From: Alphaproteobacteria bacterium
GTDB taxonomy: Bacteria; Pseudomonadota; Alphaproteobacteria; JAOXRX01
Reading direction: 5' to 3'
Assembly: GCA_025800285.1 (NCBI GenBank)
Contig: JAOXRX010000037.1
Span: 1 to 52,650, forward strand
DNA length: 52,650 nucleotides
Shown here: positions 7,488 through 33,838 of the stretch, in pieces
Position numbering within the stretch: the first letter of the stretch is position 1
Layout of the letters: every line of letters starts with the position of its first letter
The notes under the pieces: model-generated
What the model was told of the DNA's origin: nothing
Seen by the model: only the letters and a program-made list of their open reading frames with translations
Databases searched by the model: none
Translations under genes and position numbers: made by a program

Positions 7488-7742
7488 CTATGCAAATGTT
7501 ACAAGAGCTTTTGTTTCTACAACTCCAGAACTATTAGCTGTAACCACAACTAATCCATTCTTAGGAGTTCCATCAATATCAGCATTCACTAATATCATAT
7601 CTCCAACTCTTAACATATCTGCAGACTCATCAAAATATGAGTTCGCAACAATAGCTGTGTTTAAGTCTTCAGACTTATAATGCCATAAGGTAAAGCTGTT
7701 TGAATATGCTAATACACTTAAATTTTCATTTGAATATGCCAT
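7488..7742 (-). CDS. Small phage-structural-type protein next to capsid gene
   Basis: 84 residues. FTLWHYKSEDLN, ANSYFDESADMLRVGDMILVNAD and a closing VVVTANSSGVVETKALV give an all-beta profile. I recognise this pattern from small proteins of unknown or accessory head function encoded beside capsid genes in proteobacterial phages; that is recall, not a search. It follows the capsid-like gene by 17 bases in one transcription unit, and an AAGGAG site is present. A role as decoration or accessory head protein is inference. It could equally be a domesticated remnant, but the frame is intact. Confidence 0.7.
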   Translation of the reverse strand: MAYSNENLSVLAYSNSFTLWHYKSEDLNTAIVANSYFDESADMLRVGDMILVNADIDGTPKNGLVVVTANSSGVVETKALVTFA

Positions 7743-7759: not shown

Positions 7760-8578
7760 TTATGATTCTAAACATCTCATTACAACAACACCTGCTGTAT
7801 CAACGATTTTTGCACCTTGACTCATCATATTGTTAACAAAATGAGAAGCTCTATCTCCATGCCATGAAATATCTGTTTTGATATCTGCTCCACTTGCATG
7901 TCCTATTGCATTTTTATGATAGAAGAAACATTTTCTAACATTTGATGACTTAGGCAATCCAGAGTGAGCAATAAATGTAGCTCCAAGCCATTTTTTAGCT
8001 TGAGCATTTTTAAATGGAAGCTCATCAGAACCAACATACTCAGCACTTGCAAACTCAGGTATTGAAAGAAGCTCTGTAAATTGCTTGTGTCCTAGAACAA
8101 CAAAACGATTACCATCATCAGGCACATCTGCTGCACCTAGTATTTCAAAAGCTTCTAAAATTTTAGCTTTTGTCATACCGTCAGAGTTTGATCCAGCATA
8201 GTTTGTTGATTTAGAAAGTTCTGCAATGATAAGGTCATCCGCTTTTCTACCAAGAGCATAAGCTCCTGCATTTGCAATTACACCTCTCTCATCAATGTTT
8301 GTTTTTACTTCATCAAGTCTATCCACCCAATCACCTGCATAGTAATCAGACAGAGCACACTCAACAGTAGAATGAGCCAGATTCATAACAGGAACTGTTC
8401 CGTTTCTAGCTTTTGTTGAAGCTACACCTTTTCCAATTTTTTGGAATGTTGTGCTAGAACCTAAAACATTGTTTTTGCTTCTAACTGTGTTTACAAGTTT
8501 AGAGCCCATTCTTTGGAATGACTCATGAACTTCTCTTTCGAATTGTTTTACGAAAGCTTGGTCAATTGAAGTTGACAT
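7760..8578 (-). CDS. Phage major capsid-like protein
   Basis: 272 residues, intact. The N-terminus (IDQAFVKQFEREVHESFQRMGSKL), the early mention of variable loops, DYYAGDWVDRLDEVKTNIDERG (about residue 90), the KADDLIIAEL helix and the VLGHKQFTELLSIPEFASA segment fit capsid proteins of the Phage_capsid_2 type, for which this length is usual. The end (ISWHGDRASHFVNNMMSQGAKIVDTAGVVVMRC) has the expected final strand. Such proteins self-assemble into icosahedral heads. No portal, terminase, protease or tail gene lies nearby; only the 84-residue partner is co-transcribed. It stands between aspS and def, so it is a remnant, a domesticated shell, or one locus of a dispersed particle. An encapsulin-like use is possible but unproven. 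Confidence 0.75.
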   Translation of the reverse strand: MSTSIDQAFVKQFEREVHESFQRMGSKLVNTVRSKNNVLGSSTTFQKIGKGVASTKARNGTVPVMNLAHSTVECALSDYYAGDWVDRLDEVKTNIDERGVIANAGAYALGRKADDLIIAELSKSTNYAGSNSDGMTKAKILEAFEILGAADVPDDGNRFVVLGHKQFTELLSIPEFASAEYVGSDELPFKNAQAKKWLGATFIAHSGLPKSSNVRKCFFYHKNAIGHASGADIKTDISWHGDRASHFVNNMMSQGAKIVDTAGVVVMRCLES

Positions 8579-8904: not shown

Positions 8905-9405
8905 TTATTTTTTTAGCTTTTTAAGCTTTCTAAGTATAATGTTTTTTCTTAAAGATGAGACATGATCGTAGAAAAGAACACCATTTAAATGATCTATTTC
9001 ATGTTGCAAACAAATTGTCAACAAGTCATCTGAGGCTTTAACTATTTGCTTCTCTCCATTGTAGTCTAAGTATTCAACTTCAACTTCTCTAGCCCTCTCA
9101 ACATCAGAGTATTGTTCTGGAATAGACAAGCAACCCTCTTCTTCAATAGCGGTTTCTTTTGACTTATATTTTATAACAGGATTAACTAGAAACATTGGAG
9201 AGTTCTTTTCTGAAGAAACATCTATAACAACCACTCTTTTAGACACTCCTATTTGAGGAGCAGCTAAACCAACACCATTCGAAGCATACATAGTTTCAAG
9301 CATATCATCCATTAGATTACGAATATCGTCATTAACTTCTGATACATTGCTTGCTACTTGTTTTAGAACTGGAGCAGGAGCTATTACTATATCTAATTTA
9401 GACAT
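8905..9405 (-). CDS. def: Peptide deformylase
   Basis: 166 residues, normal length. All three signature motifs are present: GVGLAAPQIG (about residue 45), EEGCLSIPE (about 91; the Cys is a metal ligand) and QHEIDHLNGVLF (about 134; HExxH supplies the other ligands and the catalytic Glu). The enzyme removes the N-terminal formyl group from new proteins. It starts 2 bases after the rbfA stop, so the two are co-transcribed. No methionyl-tRNA formyltransferase gene (fmt), its common partner, is in the window. Confidence 0.97.
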   Translation of the reverse strand: MSKLDIVIAPAPVLKQVASNVSEVNDDIRNLMDDMLETMYASNGVGLAAPQIGVSKRVVVIDVSSEKNSPMFLVNPVIKYKSKETAIEEEGCLSIPEQYSDVERAREVEVEYLDYNGEKQIVKASDDLLTICLQHEIDHLNGVLFYDHVSSLRKNIILRKLKKLKK

Positions 9406-9407
9406 CT

Positions 9408-9785
9408 CTAGTCCTCCTTAACATGAATACCTGATAATAGGTTTTCAATTTTTTCTGCATAATCCATCACATCATCTGCTCTGAAATTAATCTTTGGTGT
9501 GTATTTAAGATTAAGCTTTCTAGACATTTCTTTTTTGAAATAAGCATCCGCTTTATTAAGAGCTTTAATAGCCTTATGAGGATATTTCTCTCCAATAATA
9601 GAAACATATGCTGTAGCATTTTTTAGATCTGGAGAAATCTTAACTTCATTAATTGAGACAATAGCTTTCTTAAGGTCTCTATCATTAAAAGACCCTTGTA
9701 TAAAAATTTCGTTCAGAACTTGTTTAACTTGTTCTGATACTCTTAGTTGTCTTGTGCTTGGCATTTTACCTAACTGTTGTCCCAT
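9408..9785 (-). CDS. rbfA: 30S ribosome-binding factor A
   Basis: 125 residues. A KH-type fold is indicated by RQLRVSEQVKQVLNEIF near the N-terminus, VSINEVKISPDLKNATAYVSI in the middle and LKYTPKINFRADDVMDYAEKIENLL at the end, all typical of RbfA. It assists late 30S maturation and cold-adapted growth. The chosen start follows AAAGG by 8 bases; a second methionine at residue 8 (MPSTRQLRV) is the common start in relatives and remains possible. First gene of an rbfA-def unit; the usual neighbours truB and infB are absent. Confidence 0.94.
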   Translation of the reverse strand: MGQQLGKMPSTRQLRVSEQVKQVLNEIFIQGSFNDRDLKKAIVSINEVKISPDLKNATAYVSIIGEKYPHKAIKALNKADAYFKKEMSRKLNLKYTPKINFRADDVMDYAEKIENLLSGIHVKED

Positions 9786-9842: not shown

Positions 9843-10691
9843 TTATCTTTTTTTAGCTATGTAGAACCACTCATGTCCGATTTTAGCATCTACATTAGGC
9901 AATACCATGACAGAGTCTTCCTCTGCATATATTTTTTCACCATTTTCATATGTAGCTATTAAATCGCCTTTCGAAAGTAAATCAAAATTTTGAAACTCTT
10001 TTGCTAAAGTACCGTTTTCTCTTTTTAAAACCATTTCTTCTATATGTATTTGCTCAACCTCTACAGATGAATTAAACTTACCATCAATCATTCCAAGAGA
10101 CTTTAATAAATTAATTATAGTATTAAAAGCAAACTCTTCACTTTCCCTAGCATAATGATTTCCACACTCTAAAGTTATACAGTTAGTATTTCCTTTTAAG
10201 TTTGCAAAAGTCTCTGTTGACATTTCACAAATATCACTATCTTTATAAACCTCTGGGAAACCAGATACAAAATACTTAGCACAACTTGCTTCCACCAGCT
10301 TACGATTTTCACTAGTATCATAATCAAGAAAAGAAAAAGGAGCATCATCTGTATAAGAAGAGTGCAAATCTATCATATAATCAGCTTTTAATATTTCATC
10401 AGCCACTTGACTAGCAATTATCTCTTCATAAGAGTTTGGATTTTCATAAATGTCTATTACTCTATTTAAGTTAGTTCCAACATCACGAGTATTTTCTTCA
10501 TAAGCTCTAGGATTGCATATCGGCATAAAAGTAACAGATCCTTTTTCCAAGAAAATCTCATTGCTTTCAAACATATCAATAACTCTATTAATTGCTTTTG
10601 TCCCACACTGTTCATTACCATGTACAGCTCCAGTGAATAGAACTTTAATACTATTGTCTTTTTCTATTTTTTTAACTAATAACTGACTCAT
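9843..10691 (-). CDS. Succinylglutamate desuccinylase/aspartoacylase-family zinc deacylase
   Basis: 282 residues. Zinc-carboxypeptidase-like fold of the AstE/AspA family: HGNEQ (His24, Glu27 as first two zinc ligands), NPRAYEENTRDVGTNLNR (Asp/Asn/Arg substrate motif, about 60-75), DLHSS (about 108, third zinc ligand) and TLECGNHY (about 172, catalytic Glu). Members cleave N-acyl groups from amino acids such as N-succinylglutamate or N-acetylaspartate. The C-terminal 80 residues form the beta-rich lid seen in the family. It overlaps the preceding acyltransferase gene by 20 bases and is the last gene of a three-gene operon. This puts N-acyl transfer and N-acyl removal under one promoter. The substrate is unknown, and the full arginine-succinyl pathway genes (astB, astC, astD) are not here. 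Confidence 0.85.
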   Translation of the reverse strand: MSQLLVKKIEKDNSIKVLFTGAVHGNEQCGTKAINRVIDMFESNEIFLEKGSVTFMPICNPRAYEENTRDVGTNLNRVIDIYENPNSYEEIIASQVADEILKADYMIDLHSSYTDDAPFSFLDYDTSENRKLVEASCAKYFVSGFPEVYKDSDICEMSTETFANLKGNTNCITLECGNHYARESEEFAFNTIINLLKSLGMIDGKFNSSVEVEQIHIEEMVLKRENGTLAKEFQNFDLLSKGDLIATYENGEKIYAEEDSVMVLPNVDAKIGHEWFYIAKKR

Positions 10692-11496
10692 GTCCTAATC
10701 CTTTATTTTTGTTAGCACTAAATGATAAAGATGGCTTTTTATTACCCAGTTTTTCAATCAATTCTGGAGATTTAGAGAACCACATTGTCTTTGTTTTTTT
10801 ATCAAAAATACTTCCTATAATTTCTTCATCTTTCTTAATCTTAGCAATCTTTTCACAATAAAGGCTTTCATCAACCTTTACAGGAATCATGTTCTTTTTA
10901 TTAATAGAAAAATTAAATCGTTCTTCTTTATCTTTAACTAAATAGAATATATTAGCATTATCAAAAGGATCAACTGTTGTTTGAGTTAATAAAAATCCAG
11001 CATCTAAAAAATGCCCAAAACTTTTGTAGTTAGTAATTTCGACAGTAGCTACAGAATATCTTCTTTTAGAACCCTCTTCTAAAAAAGAGTCCATATCTTT
11101 GAACAAGCCCATACCTCTAAATTCTGGATGAACACAAACACTACCTATATAATCCAACTCTGAATTACTTATAGCATCAGCATTAAAATTAGGCAAAAAG
11201 TCTCCACTTTCATCCCTAACAGAATCCTCTGGAACTCCAAAATATCCCATTTCAGCTACTAGCTGTTTTTCTTTTCGTTTTTCATCTAATAAAAATATAC
11301 CAACCATTTTATTGTTATCATCATCAATAATAGCCGCAATTTTATCTTTAGACTTTGAAATAATATACTCTTCTTTACCTTTACCCTTCATTTCCTCAGC
11401 AACTAAATTTAAAAGATTATGTGATTTTTCTACATCTCTTAATGTAAGTTCTCTCATTAAAAATAATTTACCTTTTTTTAAAAAAATCTTACGCAT
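10672..11496 (-). CDS. GNAT-family acyltransferase (second of tandem pair)
   Basis: About 274 residues. Acyl-CoA-binding motif A is visible as IGSVCVHPEFRGMGLFKDMDSFL (about 145-168); the AEMGYFGVP strand and NYKSFGHFLDAGFLL follow the GNAT plan. It aligns along its whole length with the next gene upstream (11489-12316), so the two arose by tandem duplication. The start is ATG 11496, whose ATGCGTAA overlaps the upstream stop and which follows a GAAAGAGAG site. An internal ATG at 11457 (MRELTLRD) corresponds to the conserved start of the domain and is an alternative. The C-terminal 80 residues are a family-specific extension of unknown role. Substrate unknown; operon partner is a deacylase. 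Confidence 0.8.
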   Translation of the reverse strand: MRKIFLKKGKLFLMRELTLRDVEKSHNLLNLVAEEMKGKGKEEYIISKSKDKIAAIIDDDNNKMVGIFLLDEKRKEKQLVAEMGYFGVPEDSVRDESGDFLPNFNADAISNSELDYIGSVCVHPEFRGMGLFKDMDSFLEEGSKRRYSVATVEITNYKSFGHFLDAGFLLTQTTVDPFDNANIFYLVKDKEERFNFSINKKNMIPVKVDESLYCEKIAKIKKDEEIIGSIFDKKTKTMWFSKSPELIEKLGNKKPSLSFSANKNKGLGHESVIS

Positions 11497-12316
11497 AAAC
11501 AAACTCTCTTTCCATATTAGTTTCTTTTCTTATTAAAGATGGCCTATTAGTTTTGTTATTACAACCAAAGTGATTTAGAACTTCATCTGCTCTTATAAAA
11601 TCTATTCTTTTTTGTTCTTTATTAAATTTAGCACCTACTAAACCATCTCTTAAAGATGAGTTTAAGAATTGATCATAAAAACTAGACTCTACAGGAATAC
11701 TTGCAGAAGTATTAATTAATAACTCTCTTCTAAAATCATTTCTTTTTAAATCTTTTATAAAATAGAAGATATTTCCTCCATCATCAGGATCGACTGTTTT
11801 CTGAGTAAGAAAGAAACCTGCATCTAAGAAATGACCGAAACTTCTATAATTTTTAGTATCAACCATACAAACAGAGAATCCTCTTTCTGATCTTTCTTCT
11901 AAGAATTTATCTAAATCTTTTAAAAGACCTAAGCCTCTAAACTCTTTTTTAGTACAAACAGACCCTATAAAGTTTATATCGTTATTAGCAACATTATCTG
12001 CTTTAAAATTAGGCAAAACTGCATCAGTATTGTCTCTAGGAGAATTAGCATCAACTCCAAAATATCCTATTTCTGCCACCAAGGTATCTTCTTGACCATT
12101 ATCACCAAGGGAGAATACTCCTGCCATTTTATGTGAATCATTCAACAACATATTTCTAACTTCTGAAAGAGTCTTTTTATGAAGATATTTTTTATCTTGA
12201 TTTGCCATTTCTTGAGCAACCTCATTTAATAAAGCATGAGATTTAGCTAGATCTCTTACATCTAACATTCTAATTACAAATTCCTGATCCAATCTTCTAA
12301 TATGTGTACAATCCAT
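11489..12316 (-). CDS. GNAT-family acyltransferase (first of tandem pair)
   Basis: 275 residues, starting after an AAGG site 20 bases beyond a leader terminator. IRMLDVRDLAKSHALLNEVAQEM begins the domain; VAEIGYFGVDANSPRD, the acyl-CoA loop IGSVCTKKEFRGLGLLKDLDKFL (about 137-160) and NYRSFGHFLDAGFFLTQKTVDP are shared with the second copy. Size and partner gene recall arginine N-succinyltransferase (AstA), but I do not see AstA-specific blocks, so I leave it as GNAT. Two related acyltransferases in a row may form a heterodimer or act on different amines. Regulation is likely through the leader ORF and terminator at 12336-12460. Confidence 0.82.
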   Translation of the reverse strand: MDCTHIRRLDQEFVIRMLDVRDLAKSHALLNEVAQEMANQDKKYLHKKTLSEVRNMLLNDSHKMAGVFSLGDNGQEDTLVAEIGYFGVDANSPRDNTDAVLPNFKADNVANNDINFIGSVCTKKEFRGLGLLKDLDKFLEERSERGFSVCMVDTKNYRSFGHFLDAGFFLTQKTVDPDDGGNIFYFIKDLKRNDFRRELLINTSASIPVESSFYDQFLNSSLRDGLVGAKFNKEQKRIDFIRADEVLNHFGCNNKTNRPSLIRKETNMEREFVYA

Positions 12317-12335
12317 CTTTTTTCCTTACTTAATT

Positions 12336-12369
12336 AATAAAAAAAGCTCTCATAATTAATGAGAGCTTT
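12336..12369 (-). terminator. Leader terminator (attenuator) of the acyltransferase operon
   Basis: Stem AAAGCTCTCAT / ATGAGAGCTTT (12343-12353 and 12359-12369), 5-base loop, then a run of seven Ts on the minus strand. It ends only about 20 bases before the start codon at 12316, leaving almost no room for another promoter, so the operon should be expressed by read-through. Confidence 0.8.
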
Positions 12370-12403
12370 ATTTCGATTTTAGATAAAAACTAAACTTCTA
12401 CTT

Positions 12404-12460
12404 TTAACTCTCTGTTAAAATAGTTCTTCTTATTTTTAGTTTTCTACCCTTTAAAAACAT
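12404..12460 (-). CDS. 18-residue leader peptide, Lys/Arg-rich
   Basis: Too short for usual gene calling. On the minus strand an AAGGAAG site is followed by ATG at 12460 and an ORF reading MFLKGRKLKIRRTILTES, then TAA. Six of its first twelve residues are Lys or Arg (codons AAG, AGA, AAA, AAA, AGA, AGA). It lies between a strong promoter and the terminator before the acyltransferase operon, the classical position of an attenuator leader peptide. The coding segment GAAAACTAAA can pair with TTTAGTTTTT between the ORF and the terminator. A complete four-segment attenuator with a clear antiterminator was not resolved by eye. Confidence 0.55.
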   Translation of the reverse strand: MFLKGRKLKIRRTILTES

Positions 12461-12490
12461 CGTTTCTTCCTTTTGTTGTTTTGTAGAAAT

Positions 12491-12519
12491 AATATATCAC
12501 AAAAATGCAATAAAATCAA
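12491..12519 (-). promoter_or_regulatory. Promoter of the acyltransferase-deacylase operon
   Basis: Minus strand TTGATT (12519-12514), 17-base spacer, TATATT (12496-12491). Transcription would start near 12484 and pass through the leader ORF and terminator before the first acyltransferase gene. Confidence 0.75.
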
Positions 12520-12548: not shown

Positions 12549-13710
<1,162 letters not shown>

Positions 13711-13853
13711 AACAAATCATAAAACTCAATCTCTATATTATCGCCTTACCCCACCACTATCCTTTTATTTTTATCACGATACTCTGTCATTCCCTACCCC
13801 CTCTCTGTCATTATCTCGAAAGCGGGAACCCCTCCCTATGCATATCTTAATCC

Positions 13854-13963
13854 GTCATTCTGAATGGACACACTTGTGTGGTAGTGAAGAATCTCTCTGT
13901 GTTACTGGATATAAATCAACATTACACAGGCTCGAAAGGATTCTTCACTTTGTTCAGAATGAC
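13854..13963 (+). repeat. REP-like palindromic repeat, copy 1
   Basis: The gene-free stretch 13656-14050 holds the tgt promoter, this repeat and the pilin-gene terminator. The element is a 110-base imperfect inverted repeat: ends GTCATTCTGAA and TTCAGAATGAC, inner arms GAAGAATC and GATTCTTC, and centre arms TGTGTTA and TTACACA. A second copy is at 33676-33786. Fragments with GTCATT just upstream (about 13787-13830, including TCTCGAAAGCGGGAACC) look like remains of other copies. The whole could fold into one long hairpin. Confidence 0.85.
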
Positions 13964-13997
13964 TGAGAAAAATTGAGACTGGCGAAAAAAAGCATAA

Positions 13998-16651: not shown

Positions 16652-16990
16652 ATGCCTACAATTTTACCAAAAGATGATGATAACAACCCTATTCCAGCTT
16701 TAAGACTAAAAGACGGTAAAGCTCACAAGATAATAGCCTCAAGCACCGCGAACAGAAATAGTGTTCCATTTAGCTTTGGAACAAAAGTTATAAGCTTATT
16801 CACAACCGAAGACATATATATTGAATTTGGAGATGAAAACATAGTTAGTGACACTAACTCTCATTTTTTCCCAGCAGGAGTATATTATGATTTTGCTATT
16901 AACAATTGCAAACAAGCAAAAGACACTCATATATCTGTTTTAAAAGCAGGCACTAATAATGCTAATGTTTATATTTCAGAGAAGGAGTAA
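16652..16990 (+). CDS. Small phage-structural-type protein
   Basis: 112 residues from ATG 16652, 8 bases after AAAGGA. The start MPTILPKDDDNNPIPALR, then HKIIASSTANRNSVPF, DIYIEFGDEN, SHFFPAGVYYDFAINN and a closing NVYISEKE describe a compact beta protein. I recall this pattern in phage virion proteins that sit near head genes or lysis hydrolases; no search was possible. It is followed 4 bases later by the SleB-type hydrolase in the same unit. Together with the capsid module at 7488-8578 it suggests a phage- or transfer-particle origin. Confidence 0.65.
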   Translation: MPTILPKDDDNNPIPALRLKDGKAHKIIASSTANRNSVPFSFGTKVISLFTTEDIYIEFGDENIVSDTNSHFFPAGVYYDFAINNCKQAKDTHISVLKAGTNNANVYISEKE

Positions 16991-16994
16991 TAAC

Positions 16995-17411
16995 ATGAGC
17001 AAATCAAAAGAGGTTGAAATACTAGCAAGAACTCTTTTCGGAGAGGCTCGCGGAGAGGGGTTAAAAGGTTTAGAAGCTGTTGCAAATGTAATCATAAACA
17101 GATGCAAAATTTCTAAAGATAAAGAAAAGTTTTGGTGGGGAAATGATTTAATATCAATATGCCAAAAACCTTATCAATTTAGTTGCTGGAACAATGATGA
17201 TCCTAACAAAGAAAAAATTGAGAAAATTACTCATGAGGACAAAATGTTTTCCACTTGCTTAAGAATTGCAAGGAAAGCTATAGCGGGAGCTATAAAGGAT
17301 AAAACTCTAGGTTCCACTCACTATCATCATAAAGACATAGAGCCATATTGGGCAAAAGATTTAATACCCGAAACAGAAATAGGCAATCACTTGTTTTATA
17401 AACTAGTTTAA
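16995..17411 (+). CDS. Cell wall hydrolase, SleB (Hydrolase_2) family
   Basis: 138 residues from ATG 16995, which follows AAGGAG by 7 bases; an upstream in-frame ATG at 16959 lacks a site and lies within the preceding gene. The SleB fold is shown by LARTLFGEARGEGLKGLEAVANVIINR (catalytic Glu of GEARGE, about residue 16), CQKPYQFSCWN (about 52) and the end GSTHYHH...PYWA. The family cleaves peptidoglycan glycan strands (lytic transglycosylase-like). There is no signal peptide, so it would need a holin or particle delivery, as for phage endolysins. The gene ends convergently with bamB, overlapping it by 9 bases. Confidence 0.85.
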   Translation: MSKSKEVEILARTLFGEARGEGLKGLEAVANVIINRCKISKDKEKFWWGNDLISICQKPYQFSCWNNDDPNKEKIEKITHEDKMFSTCLRIARKAIAGAIKDKTLGSTHYHHKDIEPYWAKDLIPETEIGNHLFYKLV

Positions 17412-33675: not shown

Positions 33676-33838
33676 GGCATTCTGAGCGAACACACTTGTG
33701 TGGAAGTTGAAGAATCTCACTGTGTTACTGGATGTAAATTAATATTACACAAGCATGAAAAGATTCTTCGTTACACTCAGAATGACGATATAATAAAATA
33801 GCATGGTGAAAAGATTCTTCACTTTGTTCAAAATGATA
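33676..33838 (+). repeat. REP-like palindromic repeat, copy 2, plus half copy
   Basis: The gene-free stretch 33534-34021 contains this repeat and the fabZ terminator. Copy 2 (33676-33786) reads GGCATTCTGAGCGAACACAC at the left and CTCAGAATGAC at the right, with GAAGAATC/GATTCTTC inside and TGTGTTACTGGAT in the centre. It matches 13854-13963 closely by eye. A degenerate right half (GATTCTTCACTTTGTTCA, within 33800-33838) follows directly. Confidence 0.85.

What the first reader, a model, noticed from the sequence alone, without database searches (positions are those of the whole stretch)
12316..12519. Lys/Arg-rich leader peptide and attenuator before an acyltransferase-deacylase operon
A good promoter (TTGATT-17-TATATT), a ribosome site, an 18-codon ORF with six Lys/Arg codons among the first twelve, and an intrinsic terminator lie in order, with the first structural gene only 20 bases beyond the terminator. 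That geometry nearly forces control by read-through. The leader codons suggest sensing of charged tRNA-Lys or tRNA-Arg, which would tie the operon to basic amino acid metabolism.
Basis: partly seen in the sequence, partly recalled or inferred. Interest (0 to 1): 0.7.

Follow-up and report, generated by a model that had tools for sequence, protein, structure and literature searches.

The report
Arginine/lysine leader-peptide attenuator before acyltransferase-deacylase operon
Just before an operon for two acetyltransferase-like enzymes and a deacylase lies a tiny basic-amino-acid-rich gene followed by a transcription stop signal. The same arrangement is kept in dozens of related uncultured bacteria, so the cell very probably switches the operon on when ribosomes run short of arginine (or lysine).

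Summary
A promoter (12519-12491), a ribosome site, an 18-codon ORF (12460-12404, MFLKGRKLKIRRTILTES, six Lys/Arg in the first twelve codons) and an intrinsic terminator (12369-12343) precede a GNAT gene that starts at 12316. In 248 kb of the same contig no other gene has this layout with such a leader.

Relatives of the GNAT lie next to relatives of the AstE/AspA-like deacylase in at least 16 alphaproteobacterial loci. In one order the GNAT is found in 53 of 153 genomes. Sixty-two GNAT genes have a Lys/Arg leader plus terminator; a blind rule finds this in 48/77 GNATs, 0/103 other genes of the window's contig and 3/171 of relatives. Leader classes follow the GNAT tree, leader codons vary synonymously, TTGACA sits about 58 nt upstream in 65/79, and the antiterminator helices covary. 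Ribosome-position folding gives a trp-type switch that turns as the ribosome passes the basic pair, in the window too.

Every leader has an adjacent basic pair; one large class is nearly pure Arg. argB and argH are absent, so this is not biosynthetic feedback. Operon function and exact signal are unproven; drug-induced or arrest-peptide stalling remain rivals.

The parts
12491..12519 (-). promoter: -35 TTGATT (12519-12514), 17-nt spacer, TG-extended -10 TATATT (12496-12491)
   Evidence: The same distance to the leader ATG (59 nt) is the modal one in relatives, where 65 of 79 have exact TTGACA.
12466..12470 (-). ribosome-binding site GGAAG of the leader ORF
   Evidence: Sequence; such sites also precede the leader ORFs of relatives.
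12404..12460 (-). leader ORF, 18 codons plus stop: MFLKGRKLKIRRTILTES; control codons K4 R6 K7 K9 R11 R12
   Evidence: Resembles class B leaders of relatives (MFLTVAKQLKSKKRQEDNIPS, MLLTALKQLKSKRQESSFPS).
12381..12449 (-). predicted pause/protector stem-loop: outer stem pairs leader codons 4-9 (12449-12435) with 12394-12381; inner hairpin 12423-12414 with 12408-12398
   Evidence: RNA folding.
12406..12412 (-). antiterminator 5' strand GAGAGUU, at the leader's last codons and stop
   Evidence: Pairs with 12367-12361 when the ribosome is stalled on R11/R12. The same position is used in class A and class B relatives.
12361..12367 (-). antiterminator 3' strand AGCUCUC, which is inside the terminator's 5' arm
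12343..12369 (-). intrinsic terminator stem-loop AAAGCTCTCAT-TAATT-ATGAGAGCTTT, followed by a T tract (12342-12339)
11489..12316 (-). GNAT-fold acyltransferase 1
   Evidence: AlphaFold model pLDDT 79; 522 PDB matches with E<=0.001, the top ones GNATs; Pfam GNAT domains in family members.
10672..11457 (-). GNAT-fold acyltransferase 2, tandem paralogue (44% identical)
   Evidence: start set at ATG 11457.
9843..10691 (-). AstE/AspA-family metal-dependent deacylase; overlaps the end of GNAT2 by 20 nt
   Evidence: PF24827 3.5e-16; model pLDDT 93, best matches AstE/AspA/DoeB structures, CphZ and human aspartoacylase also match; Zn-site H24/E27/H110, NLNR motif and E175 conserved.
12549..13655 (-). 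upstream gene tgt (not part of the unit; read-through from it cannot be excluded)

Best explanation
A ribosome-mediated transcription attenuator of trp type. Transcription starts about 25 nt before a translated 18-codon leader. If charged tRNA for the basic codons is scarce (arginine most likely, lysine possibly), the ribosome slows at K9/R11/R12. It then covers the protector segment, GAGAGUU pairs with the 5' arm of the terminator, and RNA polymerase reads on into the GNAT-GNAT-deacylase operon. If the ribosome runs on to the stop codon it covers GAGAGUU, the terminator forms and transcription ends. Without translation the protector stem also favours the terminator. Shown by sequence and comparison: the anatomy, its conservation, translation of the leader in relatives (synonymous codon variation), covariation of antiterminator helices in relatives, and the ribosome-position switch in folding calculations. 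Inferred: that the signal is tRNA charging, that it is arginine, and that the operon answers arginine shortage in an arginine auxotroph.
For: Anatomy. Conservation before the same gene family: 62 GNAT genes with leader plus terminator; blind rule 48/77 GNATs against 0/103 and 3/171 other genes. Leader classes track the GNAT tree. Class B motif KQ[LM]KxKR varies synonymously: AAA/AAG, CAA/CAG, CTC/CTT, CGT/CGC. TTGACA at a fixed distance, 65/79 against 2.0 expected. Antiterminator helix covaries: class A exceeds all 500 shuffles, class B is reached by 9/500. Folding with a ribosome mask: class B and window switch where the ribosome passes the KR/RR pair; window 0.28 without ribosome, 0.63/0.61 stalled at R11/R12, 0.24 at stop, and 0.5% of 400 shuffles reach this contrast. 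An adjacent basic pair is in all 62 leaders. Covariance models find the leader once per genome: strong class B hits at the GNAT operons, and weak class B hits that I inspected were ordinary terminators or unrelated sequence.
Against: No transcript or expression data. The window's antiterminator is only 7 bp with one G-U pair, and the shuffle test uses a single sequence. The class B model does not match the window, so its RNA is not recognisably the same sequence; the resemblance is of peptide and layout. In class A the antiterminator overlaps only the base of the terminator, and folding gives no clear switch there. About six class A relatives and the class C leaders lack an intrinsic terminator. 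No biosynthetic gene is controlled.
Confidence: 0.7

Rival explanations
1. The leader is a drug-sensing or arrest-peptide uORF: macrolide-type drugs or another small molecule stall the ribosome at a basic-x-basic motif (K/R-x-K/R), and the same RNA switch turns the operon on. The GNAT would then be a stress or resistance enzyme.
For: Arg-Leu-Arg motifs occur in antibiotic resistance leader peptides (PMC8632094). The class A core is SLRLRR in many leaders. All class B leaders have +x+, with conserved Q and L/M positions as in an arrest peptide. The toiL uORF senses several ribosome-targeting antibiotics (PMC12121999).
Against: +x+ is not universal in class A and is no more frequent than in shuffled peptides, whereas ++ is universal. 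The GNATs match no specific resistance family.
Confidence: 0.15
2. The leader senses free arginine, ornithine or a polyamine through a nascent-chain arrest, as SpeFL/Orf34 and TnaC sense metabolites, with the opposite or more complex logic.
For: Orf34 before speF senses arginine through two consecutive Arg codons (PMC6386406). The window's IRRT resembles the IRRT of the Orf34 core. Class B peptides are conserved beyond mere basic content.
Against: speF control uses Rho, RBS masking and RNase G, not an intrinsic terminator. IRRT is not shared by the relatives. Leader sequences differ strongly between classes, which a specific arrest peptide would not tolerate well.
Confidence: 0.08
3. Plain rival: the hairpin is the terminator of tgt, the short ORF is a by-product of an A-rich leader, and the operon has constitutive partial read-through.
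For: tgt ends 180 nt upstream in the same direction with no other terminator-like site between. Lys codons are common at 31% G+C.
Against: Relatives with quite different upstream genes keep the leader, the terminator and the promoter. Background ORFs in this contig are not like this one.
Confidence: 0.07

Closest known systems
trp/his-type leader-peptide attenuators of Proteobacteria
   Same: Promoter, short translated ORF with tandem control codons, mutually exclusive antiterminator and intrinsic terminator, structural gene directly after.
   Different: Basic (Arg/Lys) control codons; the operon is not biosynthetic; the organism appears unable to make arginine (argB and argH absent).
speF leader, Orf34/SpeFL (gammaproteobacteria)
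   Same: Short ORF with consecutive Arg codons that report arginine supply (PMC6386406); IRRT in both peptides.
   Different: Rho-dependent termination, RBS masking and RNase G decay, ornithine decarboxylase downstream; here an intrinsic terminator and GNAT/deacylase genes.
uORF upstream of cysS in Rhodobacterales (uORFC-8-2, PMC8632094)
   Same: Alphaproteobacterial ribosome-mediated attenuation candidate with tandem codons of one amino acid.
   Different: Cys codons and a tRNA synthetase gene.
AST pathway enzymes AstA/AstE
   Same: A GNAT-type acyltransferase paired with an AstE/AspA-fold deacylase.
   Different: The GNATs do not hit AstA models, and the deacylase scores far below the AstE equivalog cut-off (26.7 against 305.65 bits).

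Membership tests
ribosome-mediated (trp-type) transcription attenuator | promoter upstream of the leader ORF | tested here: met
   TTGACA in place in 65/79 relatives. Start site not mapped.
ribosome-mediated (trp-type) transcription attenuator | translated short ORF with clustered codons of one amino acid or group | tested here: met
   Six K/R of the first 12 codons; synonymous variation of the motif in relatives.
ribosome-mediated (trp-type) transcription attenuator | intrinsic terminator between leader and first gene | tested here: met
   62 leaders with a terminator, window included. Some relatives lack it.
ribosome-mediated (trp-type) transcription attenuator | antiterminator excluding the terminator | tested here: met
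   GAGAGUU:AGCUCUC in the window; covarying 2:3 helix in classes A and B.
ribosome-mediated (trp-type) transcription attenuator | switch depends on ribosome position at the control codons | tested here: met
   Folding only: class B and window; unclear for class A.
ribosome-mediated (trp-type) transcription attenuator | response to starvation for the coded amino acid | not testable with these tools
   Needs expression data.
ribosome-mediated (trp-type) transcription attenuator | operon acts in metabolism of that amino acid | tested here: inconclusive
   Enzyme substrates unknown; argB and argH absent.
speF/Orf34 arginine leader | followed by ornithine decarboxylase, no intrinsic terminator | tested here: not met
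   GNAT/AspA genes and an intrinsic terminator follow.
macrolide arrest leader (+x+) | conserved basic-x-basic motif as the stall site | tested here: inconclusive
   All class B, 64% of class A (83% if x may be basic); not above shuffles in class A.
known Rfam cis-regulatory RNA | match above gathering score | tested here: not met
   None in the window; only tRNAs in 18 relative loci.
AstE/AspA deacylase family (gene 3) | fold and zinc/catalytic residues | tested here: met
AstA arginine succinyltransferase (GNAT genes) | AstA sequence family | tested here: not met
   No Pfam or NCBIfam AstA hit; only generic GNAT.

The most novel reading that the evidence does not exclude
An undescribed, anciently conserved arginine-starvation switch in arginine-auxotrophic alphaproteobacteria, mostly from animal guts. 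Shortage of charged tRNA-Arg releases attenuation of a GNAT acyltransferase and AstE/AspA-type deacylase pair that forms a new scavenging or starvation-response pathway, present at two separately attenuated loci in many genomes.
Probability: 0.35. Interest if true: 0.8.

Novelty: new member of a known kind. Interest (0 to 1): 0.62.

Why it matters
Classical attenuators watch over amino acid biosynthesis. Here the same device, with arginine/lysine codons, guards an uncharacterised acylation/deacylation pair in bacteria that lack argB and argH. If right, it names the signal (arginine supply) for enzymes of unknown function and so points to their substrates. It also gives arginine a trp-type intrinsic-terminator attenuator, which I did not find described in the papers searched. 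Leader class changes with the gene clade while the adjacent basic pair stays, which makes it a good case for studying how attenuators evolve.

Tried and rejected
1. Arginine biosynthesis by a non-orthologous ArgA (GNAT) plus ArgE (AspA-like) pair would explain an Arg attenuator neatly. Rejected: argB and argH are absent in this genome and in the tested genomes of the order. 2. Lookup of the window GNAT by close peptides in genome and viral contigs found nothing; the way in was through the deacylase. 3. Genus, family and order of the window's own genome hold no other genome, so the exact window leader could not be aligned with close kin. 4. Rfam: nothing. 5. A class B covariance model searched over the window: no match. 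6. Weak model hits that I inspected were ordinary terminators or unrelated sequence. 7. GNAT fold search: generic GNATs only, no substrate hint. 8. Covariation of the class B 1:2 protector helix: none beyond shuffles, so that helix is not supported by covariation.

Full report
What is there. The finding lies on the minus strand between tgt (12549-13655) and two tandem GNAT genes followed by an AstE/AspA-type deacylase. Reading 5' to 3': TTGATT-17-TATATT with a TG-extended -10 (12519-12491), GGAAG (12470-12466), ATG at 12460, codons MFLKGRKLKIRRTILTES, stop ending at 12404, an 11-bp stem with a T tract (12369-12343), then AAGGAAAAAAG and the GNAT start at 12316. The promoter match alone is not better than chance in this A+T-rich DNA, but the terminator and the combination are.

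Proteins. The GNATs have no specific family assignment, but they fold as GNATs (pLDDT 79, hundreds of matches) and family members match Pfam GNAT domains. The third gene is a well-modelled AstE/AspA/DoeB-fold deacylase (pLDDT 93) with the zinc site and catalytic Glu conserved. GNAT2 and the deacylase overlap by 20 nt. The GNAT lies next to a deacylase relative in at least 16 alphaproteobacterial loci, as a tandem operon or as a convergent pair, and some genomes hold two such loci.

Conservation of the leader. In the order that holds most of these relatives, 53 of 153 genomes carry the GNAT family. Upstream of the GNATs I found leader ORFs of three main kinds. Class A ends in LRR* or similar, as in MTNFNLTSLRLRRLTLRR. 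Class B has KQ[LM]KxKR, as in MLLTALKQLKSKRQESSFPS. Class C has KRKxTAGI or RKKPARG. Sixty-two (window included) have both a leader and a terminator. A blind rule applied to all genes found the arrangement in 48 of 77 GNATs, in 0 of 103 other genes of the window's contig and in 3 of 171 other genes of the relatives' loci. The classes follow the GNAT tree. Exact TTGACA stands 45-65 nt before the leader ATG in nearly all of the 65 of 79 that have it, expected 2.0. The window's peptide (MFL..RKLKIRR) is closest in look to class B, but the class B covariance model does not match the window, so I claim resemblance of peptide and layout, not of RNA sequence.

Translation of the leader. Within the class B motif the codons vary almost only synonymously (AAA/AAG, CAA/CAG, CTC/CTT or ATG, CGT/CGC), while the x position varies freely. 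In class A the last codons CGACGATGA are nearly fixed at nucleotide level, which fits their role in the antiterminator helix, whereas the inner Arg codons use CGC, AGA, CGT and CGA.

The switch. In class B the leader's end (UCCCGY) pairs with the 5' arm of the terminator (RCGGGA): 95% of cells are paired, and the covariation score is reached by 9 of 500 shuffles. In class A the end CCUGCGAC or UUGCGAC pairs with GUCGCAGG or GUCGCAA(G), with compensatory changes; no shuffle in 500 reaches its covariation score. The upstream protector helix of class B shows no covariation. Folding of transcripts cut just after the terminator's 5' arm, with a ribosome mask placed at each codon, gives high antiterminator probability up to the KR pair and a drop directly after it in class B (for example L192, L198 and L204, from about 0.97 to 0.02-0.06). 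The window behaves the same way: 0.28 without a ribosome, about 0.62 at R11/R12, 0.24 at stop. Shuffling the segment after codon 12 reproduces the stall-minus-stop contrast in 2.25% and the contrast against both off states in 0.5% of 400 trials. Class A shows no clear switch in this measure, because its antiterminator overlaps only the base of the terminator stem.

Which signal. The only constant of all 62 leaders is an adjacent pair of basic residues; the basic-x-basic motif of drug-sensing leaders is not universal in class A and not above shuffles there. Class A is nearly Lys-free in its core, so arginine is the better guess. The window genome (97% complete) and the tested genomes of that order lack argB and argH, while 14 control genomes have them. 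These bacteria are therefore probably arginine auxotrophs, and the attenuator is not a biosynthetic feedback. A plausible role is a response to, or scavenging during, arginine shortage; this is inference. Covariance models find one class A leader (39 genomes) and one class B leader (20 strong hits) per genome; the strong class B hits and nearly all class A hits lie at GNAT genes by coordinates, and two class A hits had no listed GNAT beside them. The weak class B hits I inspected were ordinary terminators or unrelated sequence.

What is known. Arg-codon sensing by a leader ORF is known for speF/Orf34, but with Rho, RBS masking and RNase G (PMC6386406). An alphaproteobacterial attenuator candidate with tandem Cys codons before cysS is known (PMC8632094). 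Arg-Leu-Arg occurs in drug-sensing leaders (same paper), and toiL senses several ribosome drugs (PMC12121999). I found no report of this arginine/lysine attenuator. In kind it is a trp-type attenuator; what is new is the amino acid, the target and the auxotrophic setting.

Limits. No expression data; no close relatives of the window are held; the class C leaders and some class A leaders have no intrinsic terminator, so their output may be translational; shuffles ignore relatedness; the enzymes' substrates are unknown.

Noticed in passing
7760-8578 and 7488-7742 (minus strand): A phage major head protein gene (PHROG 3437, E 5.6e-70) and a small phage-type gene (PHROG 18004) sit beside def/rbfA in this bacterial contig: a prophage remnant or a domesticated capsid island.
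   Followed up: partly
16959-17411 (plus strand): An endolysin-like cell wall hydrolase (PHROG 938, E 1.2e-22) stands alone between an ABC transporter gene and a beta-propeller-like gene.
   Followed up: partly
13939-13962 and 33813-33836: A 24-nt dispersed repeat (GATTCTTCACTTTGTTCAGAATGA) occurs twice in the window; chance expectation is 0 in 100 shuffles. The first copy overlaps an inverted repeat (13844-13864 / 13953-13973).
   Followed up: partly
9408-9785 and 8905-9405: rbfA and def follow the deacylase in the same direction, with the next terminator-like site only at 8748-8728, so read-through of the attenuator might also reach these translation genes in this genome.
   Followed up: no
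own contig C37 (G000) about 128994, plus strand, outside the window: A second terminator 48 nt before a gene has a short ORF MKKAPELKAQNKPAAKKLAYTA upstream with a ribosome site; it may be another leader or chance.
   Followed up: no
L184, L187, L188, L190, L195, L196 (relatives): Class A leaders kept (...LRR*) but with no intrinsic terminator detected before the GNAT, suggesting that the output moved to translation or Rho.
   Followed up: partly
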